DNA of 64,000 nt from a virus, in IMG/VR virus record IMGVR_UViG_3300035565_000044, positions 1 to 64,000 of that record; one strand, given 5' to 3'. This document shows, one piece after another, positions 6,241-50,482 of this stretch. The notes under the pieces were generated by a model that was not told the origin of the DNA, did no database searches, and worked only from the letters and a program-made list of their open reading frames with translations. The translations under genes and the position numbers were made by a program. Each line of letters opens with the position of its first letter. The first letter of the stretch is position 1.

Positions 6241-9101
6241 GAATACTTGCTATCGTTGGTTGGATTGCGCTATGTTTGGTGGCTGGCGTCGGCGCTGGCG
6301 AGTTCCTGTCGTCCATAGCCTCAGCACAGTCTGGACAGCTCCGTCCAGGTTCTATATGGGGGAACCCAACGACAGGCGCGGCTCCCGGCCGTGATAGTAC
6401 GCCTACTGATATAATGGACTCTAAGGGCGTATTCTATGTGGATGATTATACCACGTATGCAGATTTTATCCATGACGATACCCCGGCATTCACAGCGGCT
6501 TTGGCGGCAGCAAACGCTGCTGGCGGCGGTACTGTTTATATTAGCCAGAAACATTATTGGATAAATACAGCAAATTTAACTATAGGAAAGCGCGTAACTC
6601 TTCAGTGCACAAGCCATCCTAGCAAGATGACCTCTGGATTTGATTTTAGAAATCTTCCATGTACGCTATATATGACGTCTCCATATGGAATAATTCTTAA
6701 TGGTTCCATAAAAGACGTTAATCTTCTTACATACGCTACTCAGTTGTACACTCAAAATCCAACAACTCGTGCTGCAATGAGAGCATATGTTGCTGGATTT
6801 ACGGGTACTGGCATTACTATTGGAGATGGAACTACAGCAGGTTCACAGATTGCTGATAACGCCACCATTGATAATGTTTTAATAGGTGGCTTTGGAACAT
6901 GTATTATCCAAAATCAAGCCGACCATACCTTAATAAAGGACGTTCTTGGCGATTGCACTAATGGTTTAGATATATCAAAGTCTTTTGATGATAATAGGCT
7001 TCGTGGCATAGAATTCTGGCCATTCACTACGACAAATAAGACCCATTCTTTCGACACATGGACAGTAACTAACGCAGCAGATAACGGTCTTGGCGCATGG
7101 CGTTTGACTCTCTCTGCTCCTAGCGATATCGCTACAGGTGAACAGCTTTGGGTATCACAAGGAACTGGAGCGGAAGGTGCTGGCGGACTCTATACCGTAA
7201 CCGCTGTAGATACTACGCATGTTGATTTGCAGGGCTCTGTGGTGTCTCCATCCACTACAGGAACGACAATCCAGGGTTCAACATATGTTGCAGTTACATC
7301 AACTGATGATTTGCAACCTGGAATGTCAGTCACGGGCGTTGGAATCCCAGCAGGCGCCGTGATTGGAGCCGTATGGACGACACGCCCTGCTATCAGCCTT
7401 GACCAAGCTCATCCAGCTACGGCTGCTGGCGTTGGCGTCGCTCTAACATTTGCCAGCAATGCATATGTTTCTGGAAAAACAATCGCATACAATTCCACAT
7501 GGCGCTCTGGCACTGGGTTCCGCATTGGCAGGGCTGATGGAACAACCTGCGAAGGCTGCTTTGACTTTGGATTTCACATTGGTTTCAACTTTAACCAAGC
7601 TGTCGGCGTAAGTTTTACAAACACACAACACGATCAGCACCAGCGCGTACCGAATAAGAATAATGTTGATATTGGAATGGAATTTACCGGAGCTGCTACC
7701 TATAGCAACTATATTTCAGGGTCAATGGTCACATGCGGAGGCGTATGCGTTGTATCTAATACTACTGGGAATGCTGTAAGCAATAACAACGTTATTGATG
7801 GGTATAGACTACCAACAAGTATTGCAAAGTCAACAGCTATTGAGATAGCGGCTGGTGGTTTGACGACAACAAATATAGTTAGCGCATCTGATCAAGTTAT
7901 TCTCATAGACAATGCTGCAAATATTGGAACATTTCACGGAAACTCAGCCGCAAATACAAAAATATACAGCACTGGAACATATAACAGATTTGTTGGAGCT
8001 GGAAACTTCTATGGTGGACAGATTGAATACCAAAGTCCAACAAATGAGTATGCGCAAAAATATACAGCAACTAATAGTATACCTTCTGGAACAACAAGCT
8101 ATGATCTTTATGACTCAACACAAGGTGCTGATAGTAAGTATTGGAGATGGTCAGCATCCGGTGGCGTGCTAAGGGGACAGACAGCAAATGACGCATATAG
8201 TTCTGCCGCCAATTGGATAACTGTAACCAGATCAGCTAACGTTCCATCAGTATCTACATTTGCGACTCAACTAGTGACAAAGGCTTCTGCTACTACTGGT
8301 TCTGGGTTTAATGTTCCACATGGGACAGCTCCAACAACTCCTGCTAATGGGGATATATGGACGACTACAGCAGGACTTTATTCTTATATAAATGGAACTT
8401 CATATCAATATTTACCAGTAAGTTCTACACTATCTCCAACATTTGGTAGTGGCGTTAGGCTAAACAGTACGGCTGGAAGCTATCAATGGTATGCTTCTGG
8501 CGCTGGTGTTGACCAAAAATTCTGGGATTTGTATGAGGGAACATCGGGTAACCTCGCATTTAGAAGCGTTAATGACGCCTTTACCCTATCAAATTCATGG
8601 CTAACATTCAATAGAGCCTCTGGATATACCATAGGTACGATATCGACTGCGGCTCCATTGACCGGAGGAACAGCCGCTTCCTCAAGCCTTATCCTAGAGT
8701 CCACATCTGGCGCTGGCACAACAGACTCCATTGTTTTGAAAACAGGTTCTCAGGTCCAGGCTGGCGTGTTTGATACAACGCAGCATTTTCAACCTGGAAA
8801 TGCCACAGCTCCTACAATAGCTAGCGCCGCCTGTGGCGCTCTGACAAACGGCGCTGTCGTAGCTGGCTCAAATGATCAAGCTATGAGCATCACGATTGGC
8901 GCGGCTGCAACCACATCTTGCGCAATAACTTTTGCAGGAACATGGGCGACAGCGCCGCGCGCTTGCATGTTCACTCCAGCTAACGCCACAGCAGCGGCAC
9001 AGGGAACGACGCTAGCCTATGTTAGTTCGATCACTGCGACAACCCTTACAATAACGGGCGCGGCTCTGGCTAACGCCAACTACTACATCCATTGCTACTG
9101 A
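6237..9101 (+). CDS. Pectate-lyase-fold tail spike with Sec-like leader
   Basis: 954 aa from the ATG at 6237, which overlaps the previous stop by 4 bases and has GGAG at proper distance; an upstream in-frame ATG at 6219 lacks this. The N-terminus (MRILAIVGWIALCLVAGVGA) is a textbook hydrophobic signal-type segment, unusual for a cytoplasmically assembled tail protein. Residues about 60-130 match the start of a right-handed beta helix (DDTPAFTAALAAANAAGGGTVYISQ). The rest is long, beta-rich and repetitive; a WTTTAGLYSYINGTSYQYL segment near residue 705 is a known tail-fibre signature. The chain ends with a compact VATSC...YIHCY-type domain. Likely receptor binding or capsule degradation. Confidence 0.75.
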   Translation: MRILAIVGWIALCLVAGVGAGEFLSSIASAQSGQLRPGSIWGNPTTGAAPGRDSTPTDIMDSKGVFYVDDYTTYADFIHDDTPAFTAALAAANAAGGGTVYISQKHYWINTANLTIGKRVTLQCTSHPSKMTSGFDFRNLPCTLYMTSPYGIILNGSIKDVNLLTYATQLYTQNPTTRAAMRAYVAGFTGTGITIGDGTTAGSQIADNATIDNVLIGGFGTCIIQNQADHTLIKDVLGDCTNGLDISKSFDDNRLRGIEFWPFTTTNKTHSFDTWTVTNAADNGLGAWRLTLSAPSDIATGEQLWVSQGTGAEGAGGLYTVTAVDTTHVDLQGSVVSPSTTGTTIQGSTYVAVTSTDDLQPGMSVTGVGIPAGAVIGAVWTTRPAISLDQAHPATAAGVGVALTFASNAYVSGKTIAYNSTWRSGTGFRIGRADGTTCEGCFDFGFHIGFNFNQAVGVSFTNTQHDQHQRVPNKNNVDIGMEFTGAATYSNYISGSMVTCGGVCVVSNTTGNAVSNNNVIDGYRLPTSIAKSTAIEIAAGGLTTTNIVSASDQVILIDNAANIGTFHGNSAANTKIYSTGTYNRFVGAGNFYGGQIEYQSPTNEYAQKYTATNSIPSGTTSYDLYDSTQGADSKYWRWSASGGVLRGQTANDAYSSAANWITVTRSANVPSVSTFATQLVTKASATTGSGFNVPHGTAPTTPANGDIWTTTAGLYSYINGTSYQYLPVSSTLSPTFGSGVRLNSTAGSYQWYASGAGVDQKFWDLYEGTSGNLAFRSVNDAFTLSNSWLTFNRASGYTIGTISTAAPLTGGTAASSSLILESTSGAGTTDSIVLKTGSQVQAGVFDTTQHFQPGNATAPTIASAACGALTNGAVVAGSNDQAMSITIGAAATTSCAITFAGTWATAPRACMFTPANATAAAQGTTLAYVSSITATTLTITGAALANANYYIHCY

Positions 9102-9111
9102 GAAAGATACA

Positions 9112-9501
9112 ATGTCTGTCCTTACCCCCACCTCAGCCGCTTCAGTTATAAACTGGATGACGGGGAACGCTACGGCGACAACATCGACAAGATATATCGC
9201 TATGTATGCTGGAGACCCTACGGCGGGTGGGGTTGAGCAGACGTTCAACCTCACTGGCGCCACTACCAGAACCAATATCACATCTAGCATACCATCTGCA
9301 TCTTCCGGAAGCGTTACGAATAACGTCGCCATCGTTATCACAGCATCAACCATAATAGCTTGCAGCGTTAACTATTTCGCAATCATGAGCGCCGCTACTG
9401 GCGGAATAGTGGTGGCGTACAAGCCTATAACGCTGATAAACCTTGGCGTTGGCGACTCTCTTACGATACCCATTGGAAGCTTAACTATAGCGATACCATA
9501 A
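9112..9501 (+). CDS. Small tail structural protein
   Basis: 129 aa. The sequence SAASVINWMTGNATAT, RYIAMYAGDPTAGGVEQT and RTNITSSIPSAS follows a common phage structural family pattern (WMTG, then YVALFTGDPT, then a beta sandwich). No Cys pair or membrane segment. It lies directly between spike 1 and the DUF2793 gene, so a tail surface or chaperone-like role is likely. Confidence 0.65.
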   Translation: MSVLTPTSAASVINWMTGNATATTSTRYIAMYAGDPTAGGVEQTFNLTGATTRTNITSSIPSASSGSVTNNVAIVITASTIIACSVNYFAIMSAATGGIVVAYKPITLINLGVGDSLTIPIGSLTIAIP

Positions 9502-9502
9502 G

Positions 9503-9664
9503 ATGACAGATCACGTAATATCAGTTAATTTGAATATAGAAGTTGACGCTAAGGCGGAGACGCCTGTCCCAGATTTTCACGTGAAACAACAGATGTCTAT
9601 CATAATTGAGAATGTATCGTTCTCAGTTGGCCGGATAGAGGAAAAAGAAGATGGTAAACACTAG
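9503..9664 (+). CDS. Small ORF, 53 aa, parS-like site inside
   Basis: ATG at 9503 to TAG at 9664, one base after the previous stop and overlapping the next start by 14 bases, the packing expected of a real gene in this operon. The product begins MTDHVISVNLNIEVDAK and is acidic and beta-prone with a charged end (GRIEEKEDGKH). It contains a parS-like palindrome (9573-9588) within the coding frame. No family recognised; the ribosome-binding site is weak. Confidence 0.5.
   Translation: MTDHVISVNLNIEVDAKAETPVPDFHVKQQMSIIIENVSFSVGRIEEKEDGKH
9573..9588. promoter_or_regulatory. parS-like palindrome 2
   Basis: ATTTTCACGTGAAACA, 14 of 16 matches to parS. It lies inside the small ORF at 9503-9664, which argues for selection on the DNA site rather than an intergenic promoter role. 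Confidence 0.6.
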
Positions 9665-28630: not shown

Positions 28631-29638
28631 TCAGCGCTCTTCTGAGCCGATGAGCTTCCTCAAGCTCGCATTCTCTTCATCTATCTCTTTAGACATTCTT
28701 TCCTTGTTGCGCTTGTAGGAGCTTCCCGTCCTTTTCCCCCCCATCACATCGGCAGTGACAGAGCGCGCAATCCTATTGGTTTCGTTGGCCTGGATAGAAA
28801 GAATATTCCCCTCACCGAAACAATCGTTAGGCGTCCACCCTTCCAGCTTCACGCCCTCGGGAACCCGTATCATTCCCACAGCCTTGTTTTCCCTGAAGCA
28901 ATTCCAGCACCAAACCAATAACTTAGCTCTCTCTTGATCAATCATGATCTTTTTGTCAGAGCGCAGTCTAATGAAATGTTCCCTGACCCTATGGGCAGGA
29001 CATCCCTCATATCCAGGTTTCCCTGTCCGAAAAACATCGAGAAAGTTATTCGCTTCCTCAAGATATCCCTGGTGGTATCCACCGATATAATGAATGGCGC
29101 CCAATGTAGACTTGGGAACGATCTCAATCGGCGCACAGCGCTTAACGCTGCTCATAACATTGGGATGGCGGTCGAGAATGTTAAGAACTTCTTCAATGGT
29201 AAGCTTAACTTTATCCGTCTGCTCATAGGCAAAATAGGCGAGCTTGCGGAGCACGGCGCTCAGGACGTGAGTGGAGATATTCCCCTGAATATTCAAGTGG
29301 TCACGGACTGTACGCAAGCGCCCGGTATCGATAGTCATCATGGCGTCTTCTTTGATGCCATAGACAACCAGACAGAGAAACGGGGGAAGGTTAGGATTGA
29401 CCTGCAACGCCGCGAGATAGCCCGTAAGGCGATGGCGGCCGTCAATCAACTGACCATTCGTATTGAAACGAATAGGCGCCCCATTAAACTTCCATTTTCC
29501 ATCGAGGAATGAACGCATCCTTTCCGCAACCGTTGCCTCAGACAAAGGCCGGTTAGGAGCCGTAACTGCAAGATAGTCTTTCGCTAATTGGGCGTCGATC
29601 TCGATAAGTTCCATATCGATTTCATCGGTTTTCCGCAT
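28631..29638 (-). CDS. ParB/sulfiredoxin-fold domain protein
   Basis: 335 aa from the ATG with AGAAAGGGAAG upstream; an in-frame TTG extends it by 10 residues without a better site. The ParB N-domain element DGRHRL (66-71) is present in the context GQLIDGRHRLTGYLAA, followed by MTIDTGRLRTVRDHL, a pattern of phage proteins usually annotated ParB-like. The rest is helical with no obvious helix-turn-helix of the chromosomal ParB type. Such proteins are nucleases, CTP-using clamps or regulators; which applies here is unknown. Notable because parS-like sites fill the window. Confidence 0.65.
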   Translation of the reverse strand: MRKTDEIDMELIEIDAQLAKDYLAVTAPNRPLSEATVAERMRSFLDGKWKFNGAPIRFNTNGQLIDGRHRLTGYLAALQVNPNLPPFLCLVVYGIKEDAMMTIDTGRLRTVRDHLNIQGNISTHVLSAVLRKLAYFAYEQTDKVKLTIEEVLNILDRHPNVMSSVKRCAPIEIVPKSTLGAIHYIGGYHQGYLEEANNFLDVFRTGKPGYEGCPAHRVREHFIRLRSDKKIMIDQERAKLLVWCWNCFRENKAVGMIRVPEGVKLEGWTPNDCFGEGNILSIQANETNRIARSVTADVMGGKRTGSSYKRNKERMSKEIDEENASLRKLIGSEER

Positions 29639-29694
29639 AATCTTCCCTTTCTGATATTTGCGACGCAACCCTGTGTGAGCTGCGTCGCGTCCTG

Positions 29695-30087
29695 CTATCC
29701 CATCTTCCGTTCTGAGCGTGCCGTCGCTTCCTGACTTACGCCTTGCCAGTAAATTCTGTCCAGATTGAGCATTTCAACCTTTTTCAAGTTGGCCTGCGTT
29801 CTGGCGTCGTGCATGGCTTTAACGTGCGCCTTGAAAGCAGCGGATGTTCTCGCTAGTCTCTCAGCAGCGGACTGCGTTAGCTTCGCATTCTGCTGTAGCA
29901 GGTTATTAATAAGCTCGTCCAGAAGAATCTTCCTCCCCTCCTCAAGGCGTGAAGCGGCGTCGTCGGCCCATACCCACCGTTCGGCGGACAGGCGCCATTC
30001 CTCACGTTTCCTGTCGCGATCCCAGTCGTTATTCCTTTGGTTTTCTCTTGGATGATTTTGCTGCGTCCTCTGCTGATACTGGTTCAT
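29695..30087 (-). CDS. Hypothetical protein, charged helical
   Basis: 130 aa with TAGAGG six bases before the ATG. The N-terminus is Gln/Asn/Arg/Asp-rich and probably disordered (NDWDRDRKREEWRL); the remainder is a long amphipathic helix region (LLDELINNLLQQNAKLTQSA). It overlaps the end of the ERF gene by 59 bases, so the two are co-translated. Likely an accessory of recombination or replication; no family recognised. Confidence 0.6.
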   Translation of the reverse strand: MNQYQQRTQQNHPRENQRNNDWDRDRKREEWRLSAERWVWADDAASRLEEGRKILLDELINNLLQQNAKLTQSAAERLARTSAAFKAHVKAMHDARTQANLKKVEMLNLDRIYWQGVSQEATARSERKMG

Positions 30088-30808
30088 TTGCAGCCTCTAA
30101 GGTCTTCTTTTTGTCAGCAAAAGCGGTTCTCACAGACGAGAGTCCAGGGCCATCTGGGATATTATTGAGGGCGTCTCGATTCTCTTCTAACCATTTATTA
30201 AGTTCAGGAATGGCCTTGCAACGACGTATCTCATCTATAGCCGTTTCTACGACTTTAGCATTATGAGTTTCATCGAGCCTGTTTTGGATGGTGGCGGCTC
30301 CATCATCATCGGTTGTGGCTAGGCACAAATAGGACTGAAGCCCATACCTCTTGCCAAACGTTAGAGAGGAACCAATGCTGTAGACAGTGGTTTCAGTAGG
30401 GAGTTCAACAAGAACAGCTTCCCACTGACCAGATTCTACATGCGTTATAAGTGTGATGATGGGGGATGTGTACCAGCGCTTTACCGTATTACCATGCGAG
30501 CGTATTGTTCCTGAGAACTGCTTCAGAAGGAACCCGTGTTTATTCAAGACGGGGCGCACGGTTGCTAGAAGGTTGCCAAGGCTGGAGAATCTTGATTTGG
30601 TAAACGGATTAGCTTTATCAGCGATAATTAACGCTTCAAGCTCTAATTGCACCTTGAGCATCGCCTTATTGAAAGGGAATGATGCGGTAGAGGCGATAGC
30701 TTCACCAAATCCTCTGAAGTATGGGGCAGGTATGTCTTGTAGTGGTATTCTATCTTCTGATTCTACTGGGTTTACTTGCGCGTCGAAGTCTTCTTCTATT
30801 TCACTCAT
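30029..30808 (-). CDS. erf: ERF-family single-strand annealing recombinase
   Basis: 259 aa from the ATG at 30808. ERF proteins anneal complementary single strands for phage recombination and genome circularisation. The hallmark is visible: FPFNKAMLKVQLELEAL at the start of the domain, LLATVRPVLNKHGFLL, and GSSLTFGKRYGLQSYL followed by the acidic TTDDDGA. The C-terminal part is variable, ending in a basic SKRKPKE. It is followed by the overlapping gene at 29695 and preceded by a pentamer-repeat array at 30871-30955, which likely carries its control region. Confidence 0.85.
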   Translation of the reverse strand: MSEIEEDFDAQVNPVESEDRIPLQDIPAPYFRGFGEAIASTASFPFNKAMLKVQLELEALIIADKANPFTKSRFSSLGNLLATVRPVLNKHGFLLKQFSGTIRSHGNTVKRWYTSPIITLITHVESGQWEAVLVELPTETTVYSIGSSLTFGKRYGLQSYLCLATTDDDGAATIQNRLDETHNAKVVETAIDEIRRCKAIPELNKWLEENRDALNNIPDGPGLSSVRTAFADKKKTLEAANEPVSAEDAAKSSKRKPKE

Positions 30809-30870
30809 TTGATTTTCCACGAAAAATAGCTGGAAGGAAACTATATCCTACCAGCCATTCAAAATCAAAC

Positions 30871-30955
30871 GGTGCGTTGAGATGTGTAACGATATGTAAC
30901 GATATGTAACGATACGCCACGTTACGCCACGTTACGCCACGAGGCGAAACGATAT
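30871..30955. repeat. Pentamer-phased repeat array A
   Basis: Seventeen consecutive 5-base units in strict phase, nearly all of the form GNNNC (GTAAC, GATAC, GCCAC, GTTAC). The units GTAAC-GATAT and GCCAC-GTTAC recur. It sits about 63 bases upstream of the ERF gene start. Confidence 0.8.
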
Positions 30956-31248: not shown

Positions 31249-31264
31249 AGTTCCACGTGAAACG
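31249..31264. promoter_or_regulatory. parS-like palindrome 5
   Basis: AGTTCCACGTGAAACG, 13 of 16 matches to parS. It directly abuts pentamer array B and overlaps the ribosome-binding site of the 30994-31245 gene. Confidence 0.55.
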
Positions 31265-31324
31265 TTGCGTTGCGAGACGGCGCAGGGCGCTGCGGCATGT
31301 TACGTCGCGAGATGTTGCGACGCG
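31260..31324. repeat. Pentamer-phased repeat array B
   Basis: Thirteen 5-base units in phase, mostly NNNCG (TTGCG, AGACG, TTACG, TCGCG). It lies 15 bases upstream of the minus-strand gene starting at 31245 and is continuous with parS-like site 5. Confidence 0.8.
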
Positions 31325-31841: not shown

Positions 31842-31852
31842 GTTTCTCTCCT

Positions 31853-31896
31853 GAAAAAAAATTCCCGGTTAGCCGATAGGGAAAAGCCAACCGGGA
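31853..31896 (-). terminator. Terminator or attenuator before the 31841 gene
   Basis: On the minus strand an 8-bp stem (31889-31896 with 31863-31870) is followed by a run of eight U, then by the ribosome-binding site of the gene starting at 31841. A terminator this close to a start suggests either attenuation or the end of a short upstream transcript. Confidence 0.65.
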
Positions 31897-32129
31897 GAAG
31901 TTGATAGAGGGAACGCAGCCCATCCCCTTTGGTTTGGACGTACAAGGGACGGGCGTGGGATTAATATAGACCCTTATGAAAAACACGCAAGGGGTAATCG
32001 TTCGATACGGACGACATTTTAGAATGAGGCAAAAATATCACAGAACCGTGGCCAAACGCCAACGGATGGGTTGACCATCCGCTACGAATAGGCTACATCC
32101 ATTCTCGTAGTAACCGAAAAGGGGAAATT

Positions 32130-33092
32130 ATGAAGTTCGGATATAAGGTTCTGGCTATGGTCGCGCTCTCTGCGACTCCTGCCATGGCGGCTGATCTCGG
32201 TAATTCTGGCGGATATAAGGACTCGGTTGAAACCGTAGCGCCTGGAGTGTCCGCAAGCTGGACTGGCTTCTACATCATGGGTGGACTGGGGCGCAGCTCC
32301 ACGTCGCATGATGTGAAGGGCCAGGAAGACTTGGCTACGGCGAAGGCGCTGACTGACGTTTATGTTCATTTCGATGGTGAGGGAAAGCGTACCTACAATA
32401 GCACTGCATGCGCAGTCAATGAAGATTGCTATAGGGCTTATAAGCAGGGCGATACTCTTCACCATAATAAAACTGGCCATGATCTTGTGGACAGCAATTC
32501 TAGCCTTGCTGGTTACACTGTAGACGCCACAAACTTTTTCTCCACTGATGGCACCGCTAGCGGGTTTGTAGGCTCTTTGGGCGTTGGCTACGATAAGCAG
32601 ATTGGCTCCATGCTGCTTGGCGTCATGGCTGACTACCAATTCCGCACCAACAAGACCACAATCGGCGGAGTTAGCGTTAAAGAATCTGACGCTATCTTCC
32701 TCGGCGCCCGTGCTGGTTTCCTTCCAACCCACAACATGCTTGTCTATGTGCTGGGTGGATACACATGGTTGAACCATTCTGGAGTTGTTAATTCTCTTCA
32801 GAGTGCTGACACCAACTATGGTGATGCCGGATACACAGCGAAATATGGCGATGGCAGCTTCGGCGGATTTACCCTTGGCGGAGGTGCTGAAATCCCCGTG
32901 GCTCGGAACTGGTTCCTTGGCGTTGAAGGCCGTCATACTTGGTACGGAAAAGAAGACCTCGTGTCCTCTACCTATACCTACACGTCTCCAACGGCCTACC
33001 ACCAGGACAAGTACCACGTTACCGACGAGCCTACCGAATGGTACGTCGGCGCCACCCTCAAGCTGAAAATGGGCGGCGACAGCTTCAAGTAA
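32130..33092 (+). CDS. Outer-membrane beta-barrel protein (alphaproteobacterial Omp type)
   Basis: 320 aa, AAAGGGGAAATT before ATG. A Sec signal peptide (MKFGYKVLAMVALSATPAMA, cleaved before ADLG) is followed by the hallmark YKDSVETV...SWTGFYIMGGLG seen in Hyphomicrobiales outer-membrane barrel and immunogenic proteins. The rest has barrel strands with Gly/Tyr/Trp alternation and ends with the typical final strand (WYVGATLKLKMGG). Two Cys lie in a predicted loop. It has its own transcription unit with a strong terminator. A phage-borne host-like Omp could alter the surface to exclude other phages or change adsorption. Confidence 0.8.
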   Translation: MKFGYKVLAMVALSATPAMAADLGNSGGYKDSVETVAPGVSASWTGFYIMGGLGRSSTSHDVKGQEDLATAKALTDVYVHFDGEGKRTYNSTACAVNEDCYRAYKQGDTLHHNKTGHDLVDSNSSLAGYTVDATNFFSTDGTASGFVGSLGVGYDKQIGSMLLGVMADYQFRTNKTTIGGVSVKESDAIFLGARAGFLPTHNMLVYVLGGYTWLNHSGVVNSLQSADTNYGDAGYTAKYGDGSFGGFTLGGGAEIPVARNWFLGVEGRHTWYGKEDLVSSTYTYTSPTAYHQDKYHVTDEPTEWYVGATLKLKMGGDSFK

Positions 33093-33120
33093 CTTGCACG
33101 ACGACCCGACTCGCGTGTAA

Positions 33121-33172
33121 TGTGAGCGCTCTTCTGAGAGGCCCCCCCTTTCAGAGGAGCGTTTTCTTTTTA
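33121..33172 (+). terminator. Rho-independent terminator of the Omp gene
   Basis: An 11-bp stem (33127-33137 with 33151-33161, one G-U pair) is followed by TTTTCTTTTT. It ends the outer-membrane protein transcript. Confidence 0.85.
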
Positions 33173-33230
33173 ACGCTCCGTGGCGTATCATAGCACCCCG
33201 CCCCGTTCCACAACGCAACGTAACGAGATA
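33171..33230. repeat. Pentamer-phased repeat array C
   Basis: Twelve 5-base units in phase (TAACG, CTCCG, TGGCG, CCCCG, CAACG, TAACG), ending 3 bases before the ATG at 33233. Confidence 0.75.
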
Positions 33231-33232
33231 TC

Positions 33233-33550
33233 ATGACTGTTATTGGAATACAGATGCTGGAGCCAACAGCAGAAGGTAAAAAGAACCTAAGCAATAGAGA
33301 CGTTGAATTTCTTAATCATGTAGCCCAAGAGATTGTTTTTGCTCGTGGGAAATTTCCAGGAACGAAGCATATGGTTGCCGTACTCTTGGAAGAGGTAGGA
33401 GAGCTGGCCAAGGCGCTCCTGGACTATGAGAACGACATTGCCCCTAAGGACGAGATTTGGCTGGAGGCGGTTCAATCCAGCGCCATGGCCATGAGATTGG
33501 CTACAGAGGGCGTTGACGGCATGCGGTACTCCAGATACAGTAACGAATGA
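33233..33550 (+). CDS. MazG-like nucleotide pyrophosphohydrolase
   Basis: 105 aa. The all-alpha NTP pyrophosphohydrolase pattern is visible: FARGKFPGTKHMVAVLLEEVGELAKALLD, with the metal-binding EExxE at 53-57, and the second helix pair WLEAVQSSAMAMRLATEG. Phage relatives hydrolyse (d)NTPs or ppGpp. It is shorter than full MazG (about 260 aa), as is usual for single-domain phage forms. Array C lies right before it and array D right after it. Confidence 0.8.
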   Translation: MTVIGIQMLEPTAEGKKNLSNRDVEFLNHVAQEIVFARGKFPGTKHMVAVLLEEVGELAKALLDYENDIAPKDEIWLEAVQSSAMAMRLATEGVDGMRYSRYSNE

Positions 33551-33610
33551 TTTCTCCCCGCTCCGTATCGTAGCGTATCGTACCGCAACATACCTTGACG
33601 TAACGCATCC
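33541..33610. repeat. Pentamer-phased repeat array D
   Basis: Fourteen 5-base units in phase, including TATCG-TAGCG-TATCG-TACCG and TGACG-TAACG. Starts within the end of the MazG-like gene and precedes a terminator and the GcrA-like gene. Confidence 0.75.
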
Positions 33611-33672: not shown

Positions 33673-34041
33673 ATGCTGAAAGAACGTGCGCTCAAGAGGT
33701 TAAAGAAGAATCTAGGGAACACATATGGCTACAGAAACGCAGCGTTGGCTAAAGAGCCGACGCCAGCGGAAAAGGTCATAGAAACCAAAAAAGAGGAGAC
33801 TGGTCTAACCATTTTAGACCTAGGCTCCAAGCAATGTAAATGGCCTACAGGCTACAACGAGTTCGGAGAAATTACTTTCTGTGGCAAGAAGAGACACCAA
33901 AGAGAGGACACTGGTGCGAAAAGTCCGTATTGCGCTTCACACCATCGGCTTGGACTCGACAAATATAGACCAAGACGAGGAAACGGAGGCGGCGGAGACG
34001 CCAAAGGCGATAGTGTACGCTCAACTGGCAAGGGCGGTTGA
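33673..34041 (+). CDS. GcrA-like zinc domain protein
   Basis: 122 aa with GGGGATGAT before ATG. Residues 46-95 match the C-terminal part of GcrA, the alphaproteobacterial cell-cycle regulator: TILDLGSKQCKWPTGYNEFG, FCGKK, then SPYCASHH, giving a likely zinc site C55, C70, C87, H90. The N-terminal helix-turn-helix of GcrA is missing; instead there is a short basic Lys/Arg region. In GcrA this C-terminal region contacts sigma70, so the phage protein may redirect or block host sigma70 transcription. The last 25 residues are Gly/Arg-rich and overlap the next gene. Confidence 0.65.
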   Translation: MLKERALKRLKKNLGNTYGYRNAALAKEPTPAEKVIETKKEETGLTILDLGSKQCKWPTGYNEFGEITFCGKKRHQREDTGAKSPYCASHHRLGLDKYRPRRGNGGGGDAKGDSVRSTGKGG

Positions 34042-34342
34042 CGAGTACGTCTGCGACATGATCATGGTCAAGTCTAAGGCTGGCCATGGGCTTCCTGCCA
34101 TTGCTGAATATCTTGGCCTTGAGCAGGATACCATATTGCATATGGGGAGCACCAAAGTAGAGGGCAGCTACCAGGGAAAGGCTGGAGCCAAGCTATCTGA
34201 CAGAGAGCGATTAGAAAGAAATAGGATTATTATAGACCTTTATGAAAAAGGTTTTCGACAGGTAGACATAATTAGGAAAATGAATATTTCCGCCCCTGTC
34301 GTCAACACCATTATATCAAAGCACCTTGGTAAGAATAAATGA
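34013..34342 (+). CDS. Helix-turn-helix protein, likely regulator
   Basis: 109 aa from a GTG with AAAGG five bases upstream; an ATG at 33881 would overlap the GcrA-like gene by 161 bases and seems less likely, so the start is uncertain. The C-terminal 40 residues (LYEKGFRQVDIIRKMNISAPVVNTIISKHLG) form a clear helix-turn-helix of the resolvase or homeodomain-like kind, and an earlier GLPAIAEYLGLEQDTI could be a second. It follows the GcrA-like gene and may be a phage transcription regulator. Confidence 0.6.
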   Translation: MYAQLARAVDEYVCDMIMVKSKAGHGLPAIAEYLGLEQDTILHMGSTKVEGSYQGKAGAKLSDRERLERNRIIIDLYEKGFRQVDIIRKMNISAPVVNTIISKHLGKNK

Positions 34343-36900: not shown

Positions 36901-37234
36901 TGATCCATTCCGTCATAACGTTGGTTGTCATGACGCGCCTCCCAGATCCTATTTTGAAGTAGGCGGGGGTTTCCACATTACGCCTTCCCCATAACTTTGG
37001 TACAATAATAATTTCATAACCCACCCATCCCTCGCGTTGAGCCGTTTGTAGGGCTAGGTGTACATTGGCGATAGAGAGGTGATGACCGTACATCCTCTCA
37101 AGCTCCCGTAATATGACCATAGACCGTTTTGAGCTAGTGTAGCTAAGGACGGATGGGAGGCTGTTGATGATATCATCTTGGTTAGGTCCACTGGAGACGG
37201 CCTTTATCATCCCTACTGCATCTTTCCAGCTCAT
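36851..37234 (-). CDS. Hypothetical protein, possible winged helix
   Basis: 127 aa from the ATG overlapping the VWA gene stop by one base, with CAGGAGAAT upstream. The middle (SYTSSKRSMVILRELERMYGHHLSIANVHLALQTAQREGWVGY) reads as a winged-helix fold, followed by a beta hairpin and TPAYFKIGSG. Co-translated with the VWA gene; may be a partner or regulator. Confidence 0.55.
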   Translation of the reverse strand: MSWKDAVGMIKAVSSGPNQDDIINSLPSVLSYTSSKRSMVILRELERMYGHHLSIANVHLALQTAQREGWVGYEIIIVPKLWGRRNVETPAYFKIGSGRRVMTTNVMTEWINESPEAPPQTAYAQKS

Positions 37235-38262
37235 TACATTCTCCTGACTAGAGTCCATATCATAAGTTTAGAGTTTATAGGAAGCTTACGATTATTGCTT
37301 GTACTCTGGATATATATCTCATAACCCCCATGGTCTCCAGGGGACAGGGATATGTTACCCTGATGCGGCAAACCAAGTAGGTCACGGGCAGCTATGCCGC
37401 TGTAGACGCTCCCTGTGGCTTTGTCCCTTATGCAGATAACCTTATGATCCTGAACAACTTTTTCGTATTTAACCAACTCATACAAAGAAGTTCCCTTACG
37501 GAAATCTCCAGTCTTATCCCTGCAAAAACTCTCTATGTTGTTCGGCACGTCAACAGGAATAATGCGCACTTCACTAGAGATATCCACCAGGGCCGCTTTA
37601 ACGTCCTCAGCCTTGACGTTCTTCAGGTTCGAGTAGAAGCTCGTGGTAGAGCGTCCGCCGCTGGCTCTGAGGCTGAAATACTCATTCACAGCCAAATCGT
37701 TGGCCGCTGTAGCCGCTTTGAAACCGCTCTCAGTCTGCACCCACTCCAGGATATTCCCTTCGTGGACGCCAAGCTTAACCAGAGCTGATTTATAGCCCTT
37801 GGGAACTCTAAAGACAAAGCTCCACCTATCCGTAGCGTGAAGACGCTCCATCTCGGAGGCCAGCCCTCTTTTCCATTTCTCTGACGAGCTGTTCTCTTGC
37901 CCATCAGTTGTAACCATAACAAGAAATGAAACGTCTAGACTATCAGCGTCTGGAACGCTAGACAATAGAGTTATAGCTTCTCCAACAGAGTCAAAAAGTG
38001 GAGTGCTGGCTCCATTGGTGATATATGATTTTTCCTCAATAGGTTTAAGAACGTGAACACTAGAGTTGATGTGTTCTCTAACAACCTTGCCCTCACCGGG
38101 GCCAATTCCGCACTTTATAGTGCTGACGATTGTGTCGATATTATTTATGGTTGCGGCGTTCTTTATAGACGCTATGTTAGCGTTATAATCGCGAGCGGCG
38201 GGGGCAGCTATCCGACCCATGGAATAGCTATGATCACGGATAAAGGCGATGTACTGCTTCAT
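37234..38262 (-). CDS. VWA-domain protein
   Basis: 342 aa, GAAAGGAAATAGC before ATG. A von Willebrand A domain starts at once, with MIDAS residues D10xS12xS14 (RDHSYSMG), Thr in STPLFDS and Asp in TTDGQENS. The C-terminal half (about 200-342) has no known domain and ends in beta-rich sequence. Phage VWA proteins of this form occur near AAA ATPases, and one (39235) lies a kilobase away on the same strand, beyond three tRNAs. Binding partner and role unknown. Confidence 0.75.
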   Translation of the reverse strand: MKQYIAFIRDHSYSMGRIAAPAARDYNANIASIKNAATINNIDTIVSTIKCGIGPGEGKVVREHINSSVHVLKPIEEKSYITNGASTPLFDSVGEAITLLSSVPDADSLDVSFLVMVTTDGQENSSSEKWKRGLASEMERLHATDRWSFVFRVPKGYKSALVKLGVHEGNILEWVQTESGFKAATAANDLAVNEYFSLRASGGRSTTSFYSNLKNVKAEDVKAALVDISSEVRIIPVDVPNNIESFCRDKTGDFRKGTSLYELVKYEKVVQDHKVICIRDKATGSVYSGIAARDLLGLPHQGNISLSPGDHGGYEIYIQSTSNNRKLPINSKLMIWTLVRRM

Positions 38263-39028: not shown

Positions 39029-39100
39029 TGGCGCTCCTACACAGGATCGAACTGTGATTTTCAGGATTGAAAGCCTTATCCCTCACCAGAGGATAGGAGC
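39029..39100 (-). tRNA. tRNA-Glu (TTC)
   Basis: 72 nt with G73 and encoded CCA. Acceptor stem 7 perfect pairs, anticodon loop CTTTCAA, T-arm CACAG/CTGTG perfect. The D-loop is only four bases (GGTG), shorter than usual, and the anticodon stem has one mismatch. Confidence 0.85.
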
Positions 39101-39107
39101 ATATACT

Positions 39108-39162
39108 ACTCGTTACGTCACGTCAAGTTACGGGGCAAAGCGTCAAGACACGATACGATGCA
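39108..39162. repeat. Pentamer-phased repeat array E
   Basis: Eleven 5-base units in phase (ACTCG, TTACG, TCACG, TCAAG, TTACG, ACACG, ATACG), starting 8 bases upstream of the tRNA cluster and reading toward it. Confidence 0.75.
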
Positions 39163-41305: not shown

Positions 41306-41365
41306 AGACGTTGCGTTATGTTGTGATGCGAGACGTAACGGCGAGTTACGATACGACGTGGTGTT
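41306..41365. repeat. Pentamer-phased repeat array F
   Basis: Twelve 5-base units in phase (AGACG, TTGCG, TTATG, ATGCG, TAACG, TTACG, ATACG), directly upstream of the 41304 start and overlapping the stop of the next minus gene. Confidence 0.75.
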
Positions 41366-46259: not shown

Positions 46260-46324
46260 TAACGTTTCGCCTCGTAACGCATCATAACACGCCTCTCCTC
46301 TTCGCACCATAACGTAACGTTTCA
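46260..46324. repeat. Pentamer-phased repeat array H
   Basis: Thirteen 5-base units in phase (TAACG, TTTCG, CCTCG, TAACG, CATCA, TAACA, then TAACG-TAACG), running into parS-like site 9. Confidence 0.75.
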
Positions 46325-48804: not shown

Positions 48805-48930
48805 GTGGCTAGATTTCCGATTACAACGATAGCTCAGTTGGTAGAGCAACAGACTTCATATCTGTAAGTCGTAGGTTCAAACCCTACTCGTTATCCCGTA
48901 AGGGGTAATCCATCGTAAATCGTTTTTCCC
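48805..48930 (+). ncRNA. Y-RNA-like unit 3 enclosing a tRNA-like cloverleaf
   Basis: Begins GTGGCTAG and contains CGATTACAACG. Closing helix: GATTT and GATTAC (48812-48824, CC internal loop) with GTAATC (48905-48910) and AAATC (48917-48921). Within it lie a full tRNA-like cloverleaf (48823-48895) and a GUAA-capped hairpin (48893-48906). Ends GTTTTTCCC. A stem holding a tRNA-like module next to a Ro60 gene is the architecture of bacterial YrlA-type Y RNAs. Confidence 0.75.
48823..48895 (+). tRNA. tRNA-like cloverleaf, anticodon TCA, inside Y-RNA-like unit 3
   Basis: All four arms are present: acceptor ACAACGA/TCGTTAT (one mismatch at pair 2), D-arm GCTC/GAGC with loop AGTTGGTA, anticodon arm ACAGA/TCTGT with loop CTTCATA, variable AAGTC, T-arm GTAGG/CCTAC with loop TTCAAAC. 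The anticodon would be UCA (reads UGA). Against a working tRNA: no encoded CCA although the other phage tRNAs have it, U at position 37, and the acceptor end shared with the enclosing helix. Could be a Y-RNA module or an opal suppressor. Confidence 0.6.
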
Positions 48931-49075: not shown

Positions 49076-50482
49076 ATGGCTCGTACTAATACTAGGACCA
49101 GAGCGCCACGCCCTCTGACGCATGAAGGCGCTCCAGCCGATAGGATCACAAAAGAGCAAGAGTTGCGCCGCTCTGTGTCTTGCTGCCTGCTTTGGGAGAA
49201 TGAATTCTATGAAAGCGGTGAAGACATTGCTAGCCGCATCAGGCGTCTCGCGCTGGAATGTTCTCCTCAATTTGTGTCTAATCTTGCTATTGATGTTCGC
49301 AATCGTCTTCACCTTCGTCACGTTCCTCTTTGGCTGCTTTGCGCTTTGGCTAAAACTGGAACTGGAATTCCGGGGCTTGTGGGGAATACTGTAGCACAAA
49401 CCATCCAACGCCCAGACGAAATTCCTGAGCTTTTGGCGCAGTATTACAAGGCCAATGGCGTTGCTATTAAGGATAAGGGCGGAAAGATCAACAAGATCAA
49501 GATGCCTAAGCAATTCAAGAATGGTATCGCGCGAGCCTTCACTAAGTTCAACGAGTACTCGCTGGATAAGTGGAACAAAGACGGCGATATCTCCTTGAAA
49601 TACGCCATGCGCGGCGTCCATCCAAAGCCAAAGGATGAGGCTCAGGCTCAGTTGTGGGCTAAGCTTTTGGGTAAGGAAGATAAGGAAACTGGCAAGTCTC
49701 AGAAGCTTAAGACGGCAGATACAGTCATGTCCGCCTTGAGCGCTGGAAAAGAAAAGAAAACAGCAGAAGATAAGAAAACTGTTTTCGAGCGCCAGTTGCG
49801 TGAAGGAAAGATTGGATATTTCGCGTTATTGAAGAACTTGCGCGGGATGGTTGATGCTGGCGTTGACAGGCAGCTCGTTATTGACGCATTGCGCGCTAGG
49901 AAGGGAGACAAGGGAATTTTGCCGTTTCGCTATGTTTCCGCTGCGCGGGCGGCGCCAACGTATGAACCATATGTTGATGAAGCTCTTCAGCACGCGATTA
50001 AGAGCAGCAGGGAACTTCCAGGGCATACTTGGGTGCTTGTTGACGTTAGCGGCTCCATGGACGCCAGTATCTCTGCAAAGAGTGATCTTAGCCGGATAGA
50101 CGCCGCTGCGGCTCTGGCGTCTCTGATTCACGGAGACAGAACAGTTATTACGTTCAGCAATGAAATAAAAGTTGTTCCAAGTCGCCACGGTATGGCTGGA
50201 ATTGAGGCTATTCTCAAGAGCCAGATTCATAGCGGTACTGAGATGGGAAGGGCCATAAAGTATGTGAATGATCGCGCCAAGCCCCAAGATCGGCTTATCG
50301 TGATCACTGACGAACAGAGCGGGGATGTCGTCCCTGATCCAGTTTGCCAGAACGCATACGTCATAAATGTTGCGTCCTACCGCAATGGCGTCAGTTACGG
50401 CCATGGATGGAACCATATTGACGGTTGGAGCGAAGCCGTGATAGATTACATTCATGAGCATGAGGCTACGCTTAAATTGTAG
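49076..50482 (+). CDS. Ro60-family protein (TROVE-VWA)
   Basis: 468 aa with TAGAAAGGAAAG before ATG. Residues about 20-300 are the helical-repeat TROVE ring: ITKEQELRRSVSCCLLWENEFYESGEDIASRIRRLALE, RHVPLWLLCALAK, KYAMRGVHPKPKDEAQAQLW, and LREGKIGYFALLKNLRGMVDAGVD. A VWA domain follows with a complete MIDAS: DVSGSMD (about 322-328), SGTEMG, and ITDEQSG. In animals and bacteria Ro60 (Rsr) binds Y RNAs and misfolded RNAs and, with PNPase, directs RNA decay. Directly upstream lies a promoter-RNA-terminator unit with three Y-RNA-like transcripts. Confidence 0.9.
   Translation: MARTNTRTRAPRPLTHEGAPADRITKEQELRRSVSCCLLWENEFYESGEDIASRIRRLALECSPQFVSNLAIDVRNRLHLRHVPLWLLCALAKTGTGIPGLVGNTVAQTIQRPDEIPELLAQYYKANGVAIKDKGGKINKIKMPKQFKNGIARAFTKFNEYSLDKWNKDGDISLKYAMRGVHPKPKDEAQAQLWAKLLGKEDKETGKSQKLKTADTVMSALSAGKEKKTAEDKKTVFERQLREGKIGYFALLKNLRGMVDAGVDRQLVIDALRARKGDKGILPFRYVSAARAAPTYEPYVDEALQHAIKSSRELPGHTWVLVDVSGSMDASISAKSDLSRIDAAAALASLIHGDRTVITFSNEIKVVPSRHGMAGIEAILKSQIHSGTEMGRAIKYVNDRAKPQDRLIVITDEQSGDVVPDPVCQNAYVINVASYRNGVSYGHGWNHIDGWSEAVIDYIHEHEATLKL

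What the first reader, a model, noticed from the sequence alone, without database searches (positions are those of the whole stretch)
32130..33092. Phage-encoded alphaproteobacterial outer-membrane barrel
A full host-type Omp with its own signal peptide and terminator sits alone among early phage genes. Phages rarely carry Omps; known cases change surface receptors to exclude other phages.
Basis: partly seen in the sequence, partly recalled or inferred. Interest (0 to 1): 0.62.

Follow-up and report, generated by a model that had tools for sequence, protein, structure and literature searches.

The report
Phage-borne outer-membrane beta-barrel gene
A virus that probably infects alphaproteobacteria carries an intact gene for a bacterial-type outer-membrane barrel protein; several unrelated phages carry relatives, so it is real but of a known kind, and the likeliest role, not tested here, is remodelling the surface of the infected cell.

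Summary
At 32130-33092 (+) there is an intact 320-aa ORF with a Sec signal peptide, a Pfam OMP_b-brl match above the curated cut-off and a strong terminator at 33124-33164. It stands alone between a leftward block (ERF recombinase) and a rightward block (GcrA-domain gene) of a 100.5-kb phage record. A five-sequence AlphaFold model gives an 8-stranded barrel with a 66-residue disordered first loop holding the protein's only two cysteines. Its best Foldseek matches include NspA, Ail, OmpX and OmpA.

Sequence relatives occur in four other IMG/VR phage contigs and in the isolated temperate Agrobacterium phage Rivra. The viral structure library already lists phage "outer membrane beta-barrel" proteins. 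So the kind is known, and a chimera is unlikely.

The exclusion function is plausible but untested. No close bacterial homologue was found with the two capped genome scans, so the host cannot be named below class level.

In passing: about 20 parS-like palindromes (GTTTCACGTGAAAC) stud this phage genome, mostly intergenic and about 40 times above chance, with no ParB found.

The parts
32120..32124 (+). RBS-like AGGGG, 5 nt before the ATG
   Evidence: sequence
32130..33092 (+). outer-membrane beta-barrel protein, 320 aa (P0001), OMP_b-brl
   Evidence: Pfam PF13505 E 1.2e-8 above cut-off; hhalign 98.3% to three phage OMPs; 8-stranded AlphaFold model
32130..32189 (+). Sec signal peptide (aa 1-20), AMA|AD cleavage motif
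   Evidence: inspection of translation; h-region mean hydropathy 2.2
32331..32528 (+). predicted first surface loop (aa 68-133), 66 residues, disordered in the model, with the protein's only two cysteines (C94, C100)
33124..33164 (+). intrinsic terminator
   Evidence: z -5.8
33673..34041 (+). neighbouring GcrA-domain gene (host clue: Alphaproteobacteria), context only
   Evidence: Pfam PF07750 E 1e-11
30029..30820 (-). ERF single-strand annealing recombinase (early-gene context only)
   Evidence: Pfam PF04404 E 3e-15

Best explanation
The gene is an accessory, moron-like single-gene cassette carried by a tailed phage of an alphaproteobacterium. It encodes an 8-stranded outer-membrane barrel of the Omp25/Omp31-like OMP_b-brl superfamily. 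Steps shown by sequence or model: intact ORF, signal peptide, barrel fold, long first loop, own terminator, and relatives in several unrelated phages. Steps inferred: after infection (or in a carrier state) it is expressed from its own promoter, exported by Sec, and inserted by BAM in the host outer membrane, where its long cysteine-bearing loop is exposed. There it most likely changes the cell surface so that further phages adsorb less well, by masking or diluting a receptor or acting as a decoy.
For: Pfam match above cut-off; fold model with 8 strands at pLDDT up to about 93 and Foldseek matches to NspA (TMt 0.66), OmpX, Ail, OmpA and OprG. Lone gene with strong terminator in an early region with ERF, dCMP deaminase, DnaB-like and primase genes. 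Codon usage matches the phage. Relatives in unrelated phages: G006 27-34% identity over the whole length, G007 28%, L027 52% over the N-terminal 50 residues, G005, and Rivra. In Rivra, a complete temperate phage, the OMP gene also stands alone, against the strand of the neighbouring lysis genes, and in G005 it lies beside what look like lysis genes. P0001 and the G006 protein keep the barrel and differ strongly in the first loop, yet both loops carry a cysteine pair.
Against: No experiment bears on function. No consensus promoter lies in the upstream gap on the + strand. No tyrosine or serine recombinase, ParA or ParB was found, so a lysogenic state, in which exclusion pays most, is not shown. 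Loop variability is also what any surface antigen under phage or protist pressure shows. The last residues (GGDSFK) are not the canonical terminal phenylalanine of BAM substrates.
Confidence: 0.4

Rival explanations
1. Host-benefit conversion gene: a Lom/Ail-like barrel that gives an infected or lysogenic host a surface trait (adhesion, permeability, resistance to attack) unrelated to phage exclusion.
For: The fold matches include Ail, OmpX and NspA. The best-known phage barrel, lambda lom, is described as a virulence factor expressed in lysogens, with a cited role in adhesion (PMC7067206). The relatives in G005 and Rivra lie in genomes with an integrase.
Against: No integrase was found in this record. 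A KilAC/Rha antirepressor gene is only weak evidence for temperance.
Confidence: 0.3
2. Lytic-cycle envelope helper: the barrel compensates for a host Omp that is shut off, or stabilises the envelope or helps lysis timing and debris decoying, without receptor exclusion.
For: It lies among early genes with its own terminator. In G005 and Rivra the relative is next to lysis genes or putative lysis genes.
Against: No spanin or holin feature is present; it is a complete ordinary barrel. In this phage it is far from any recognised lysis gene.
Confidence: 0.15
3. Recently captured host gene without a phage function (cargo).
For: GC 0.53 and GC3 0.57 are at the high end for this phage.
Against: Codon usage is not atypical. 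The ORF is intact, and homologous genes recur in at least five unrelated phages.
Confidence: 0.12
4. Assembly chimera of phage and host DNA.
For: None of the four fragmentary relatives covers this locus, and reads cannot be inspected.
Against: Phage-type genes lie on both sides, codon usage is phage-like, there is no frameshift, and G006 and L027 carry related barrels near replication genes.
Confidence: 0.03

Closest known systems
Alphaproteobacterial Omp25/Omp31-like surface barrels (Pfam PF13505 OMP_b-brl)
   Same: HMM match above cut-off, N-terminal A-DL...SWTGFYI motif, 8 strands
   Different: First loop of 66 residues with two cysteines; short tail GGDSFK after the last strand; encoded by a phage; no close bacterial homologue found with the scans available
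OMP-like protein gp27 of Agrobacterium phage Rivra (PV764937, annotated hypothetical)
   Same: OMP_b-brl family (70 bits), encoded by a phage, lone gene
   Different: About 30% identical; short first loop, terminal phenylalanine; next to lysozyme in a 44-kb temperate phage
Lom of phage lambda (Ail/OmpX-type barrel)
   Same: Works alike: small phage-encoded 8-stranded outer-membrane barrel; fold-level match to Ail/OmpX
   Different: No sequence-level membership tested against Lom; lambda is temperate and lom sits in its late region (own knowledge)
Cor of phi80/N15 (receptor-inactivating exclusion protein)
   Same: Possible purpose: outer-membrane exclusion (PMC11436027)
   Different: Small protein acting on FhuA, not a barrel (own knowledge)

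Membership tests
OMP_b-brl (PF13505) surface barrels | HMM score above the curated cut-off | tested here: met
   35.8 bits against 28.7
OMP_b-brl (PF13505) surface barrels | cleavable signal peptide | tested here: met
   by inspection, AMA|AD after a hydrophobic stretch; no dedicated predictor was available
OMP_b-brl (PF13505) surface barrels | 8-stranded antiparallel barrel | tested here: met
   AlphaFold with a 5-row alignment, mean pLDDT 62.9 with strands mostly 80-93; without an alignment the model failed, pLDDT 29; Foldseek to NspA, OmpX and OmpA
OMP_b-brl (PF13505) surface barrels | C-terminal aromatic BAM signature (typical rather than defining) | tested here: inconclusive
   the last strand ends TLKLKM and is followed by GGDSFK; relatives P0003 and P0004 also have tails, while P0005, P0006 and Rivra end in F
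OMP_b-brl (PF13505) surface barrels | location in the outer membrane | not testable with these tools
   needs expression and fractionation
Phage moron / lysogenic conversion gene | autonomous unit with own terminator | tested here: met
Phage moron / lysogenic conversion gene | own promoter | tested here: inconclusive
   no sigma70-type consensus on the + strand in 31842-32129; host promoter type unknown
Phage moron / lysogenic conversion gene | expressed from a prophage | not testable with these tools
   no integrase or resolvase found
Superinfection-exclusion protein | blocks infection by other phages | not testable with these tools
   needs adsorption and plating tests

The most novel reading that the evidence does not exclude
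P0001, the G006 protein and, at its N-terminus, the L027 protein belong to a phage-borne subfamily of alphaproteobacterial barrels marked by an A-DL-GG-KD motif before the first strand. Two of the three also have an enlarged, cysteine-paired first loop and a non-canonical C-terminus. The subfamily would be a dedicated, recurrently exchanged surface-remodelling protein of early phage regions.
Probability: 0.2. Interest if true: 0.5.

Novelty: new member of a known kind. Interest (0 to 1): 0.34.

Why it matters
If the barrel alters adsorption, it would show that environmental alphaproteobacterial phages, and not only lambdoid prophages, repeatedly acquire host-type surface barrels to control who else can enter the cell. 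The recurrence found here in at least six phage genomes gives a concrete gene set to test, one of them (Rivra) with a sequenced isolate and a laboratory host. As it stands it is a well-supported annotation with an untested function.

Tried and rejected
Direct search of sequenced phages and plasmids with P0001: nothing beyond a 42-bit intergenic chance match in a Paracoccus plasmid. A motif scan of viral contigs gave seven hits, of which only L011 (G005) is a true OMP. Single-sequence structure prediction failed. Rfam over 31842-33240: nothing. A 26-nt repeat upstream of the gene (31958-31983) matches the coding part of an HTH gene (34224-34249) and was not pursued as a promoter.

Full report
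Observation. The ORF at 32130-33092 (+) is intact and encodes 320 aa. It begins with a signal peptide (MKFGYKVLAMVALSATPAMA|AD) and matches Pfam OMP_b-brl (PF13505) at E 1.2e-8, above the curated cut-off. PHROGs and NCBIfam give nothing significant. The record is a 100,522-bp viral contig with no second such gene. A strong terminator follows the gene (18-bp stem, z -5.8). The 378-aa ORF on the other strand is a shadow.

Context. Upstream genes run leftwards (ERF recombinase 30029-30820; 28631-29668, phrog_5931). Downstream genes run rightwards (33233, a GcrA-domain gene 33673-34041, an HTH gene 33881-34342), followed by a dCMP deaminase, an AAA ATPase and the replication genes. Structural genes fill 1-28 kb and the end of the record (portal, major head protein, two-part terminase). 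So 'alone among early genes' is right. GC is 0.53 against 0.48 for the phage, but codon usage is not atypical. No tyrosine integrase, serine recombinase, ParA or ParB matches were found, although a KilAC/Rha antirepressor gene is present at record position 87002-87832. Lifestyle is therefore open.

Structure. Alone, the protein could not be modelled. With four phage relatives AlphaFold gives eight strands (46-67, 134-158, 161-178, 181-200, 203-220, 242-256, 261-286, 289-314), most at pLDDT 80-93, and a disordered stretch at 68-133, which by the usual topology is the first surface loop. Foldseek finds OmpA, OmpT, Ail, OmpX, NspA (TMt 0.66) and OprG. The strands are more amphipathic than in shuffled sequences (9 of 500 shuffles as high). 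The only two cysteines, C94 and C100, lie in that loop. The G006 relative also has two cysteines in its own, unrelated long loop (alignment).

Relatives. P0001 itself finds nothing among 50,697 phage records even at E 10. Two-sequence alignments found related barrels in IMG/VR contigs: G006 (63.9 kb; the tool matched residues 6-320 at 27%, next to a primase/polymerase-like and an ATPase gene), G007 (92.4 kb; 28%), and L027 (31.2 kb; 52% over residues 8-58, next to a family A DNA polymerase and an SNF2-type helicase). A motif scan found a further one in G005 (42.2 kb, with an integrase, beside what look like lysis genes). From these, the isolated temperate Agrobacterium phage Rivra was reached (gp27, annotated hypothetical, 70 bits to PF13505). 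These phages share few other proteins with this one, and only weakly for the most part, so the barrel has been acquired or exchanged repeatedly. BFVD also holds phage proteins named OmpW, opacity-type and 'outer membrane beta-barrel' with the same fold. Phage-borne barrels are therefore an established kind, merely uncommon among cultured phages.

Host. A GcrA-domain gene beside the barrel, a tail protein whose relatives are mainly Rhodobacter and Dinoroseobacter phage proteins and the Agrobacterium phage relative of the barrel's kin point to Alphaproteobacteria. A genus cannot be named: the bacterial collection scans were exhausted without a hit.

Function. The anatomy fits a surface-remodelling cassette. 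Superinfection exclusion is the favoured purpose (about 0.4), a lambda-Lom-like host trait next (0.3). Neither was tested.

Verdict. Observation confirmed; interpretation partly supported; new member of a known kind.

Noticed in passing
window 2963, 9574, 26541, 31250, 34373, 38783, 41805, 46319, 48514, 50482, 53277, 56124, 60168 and others; L002 and L003: The parS-like palindrome GTTYCACGTGRAAC occurs 15 times in the window with at most 2 mismatches (0.41 expected) and 24 times in the whole record, 7 of them perfect, mostly in intergenic gaps; 5 of the 24 have 2 mismatches. No ParB or ParA was found. It is nearly absent from the other OMP-bearing phages. It may recruit the host's ParB for partition, regulation or as a decoy; this looks more unusual than the barrel itself.
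   Followed up: partly
window 30912-30941, 31263-31279, 33209-33225, 33569-33610, 39103-39132, 41309-41320, 46273-46319: Repeats of CGTAACG/CGCAACG units, largely in gaps between genes, are enriched (21 matches against 6.7 expected); function unknown.
   Followed up: no
window 48823-48897 and 49076-50482: A canonical-looking tRNA with UCA anticodon (U at position 37) lies just upstream of a Ro60/TROVE-VWA gene. The phage uses TGA as an ordinary stop in many genes, so it may be a tRNA-like RNA partner of the Ro protein rather than a suppressor.
   Followed up: partly
record 89919-90818 and 90815-91576 (L003:7919-8818, 8815-9576): The terminase large subunit is split over two ORFs overlapping by ATGA: N-terminal ATPase and C-terminal nuclease domains in separate frames.
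   Followed up: no
window 31958-31983 and 34224-34249: A 26-nt repeat, 92% identical: one copy upstream of the barrel gene, the other inside the HTH gene 33881-34342.
   Followed up: partly
window 39032-39100 (-): A third tRNA-like gene scored by Rfam (34.4 bits) that ARAGORN did not list.
   Followed up: no
window 37234-38262 (-) and G007 29397-30245: A VWA-type protein near the barrel gene has a relative about 3-4 kb from the barrel gene in phage G007 (26% identity, E 8e-8).
   Followed up: no
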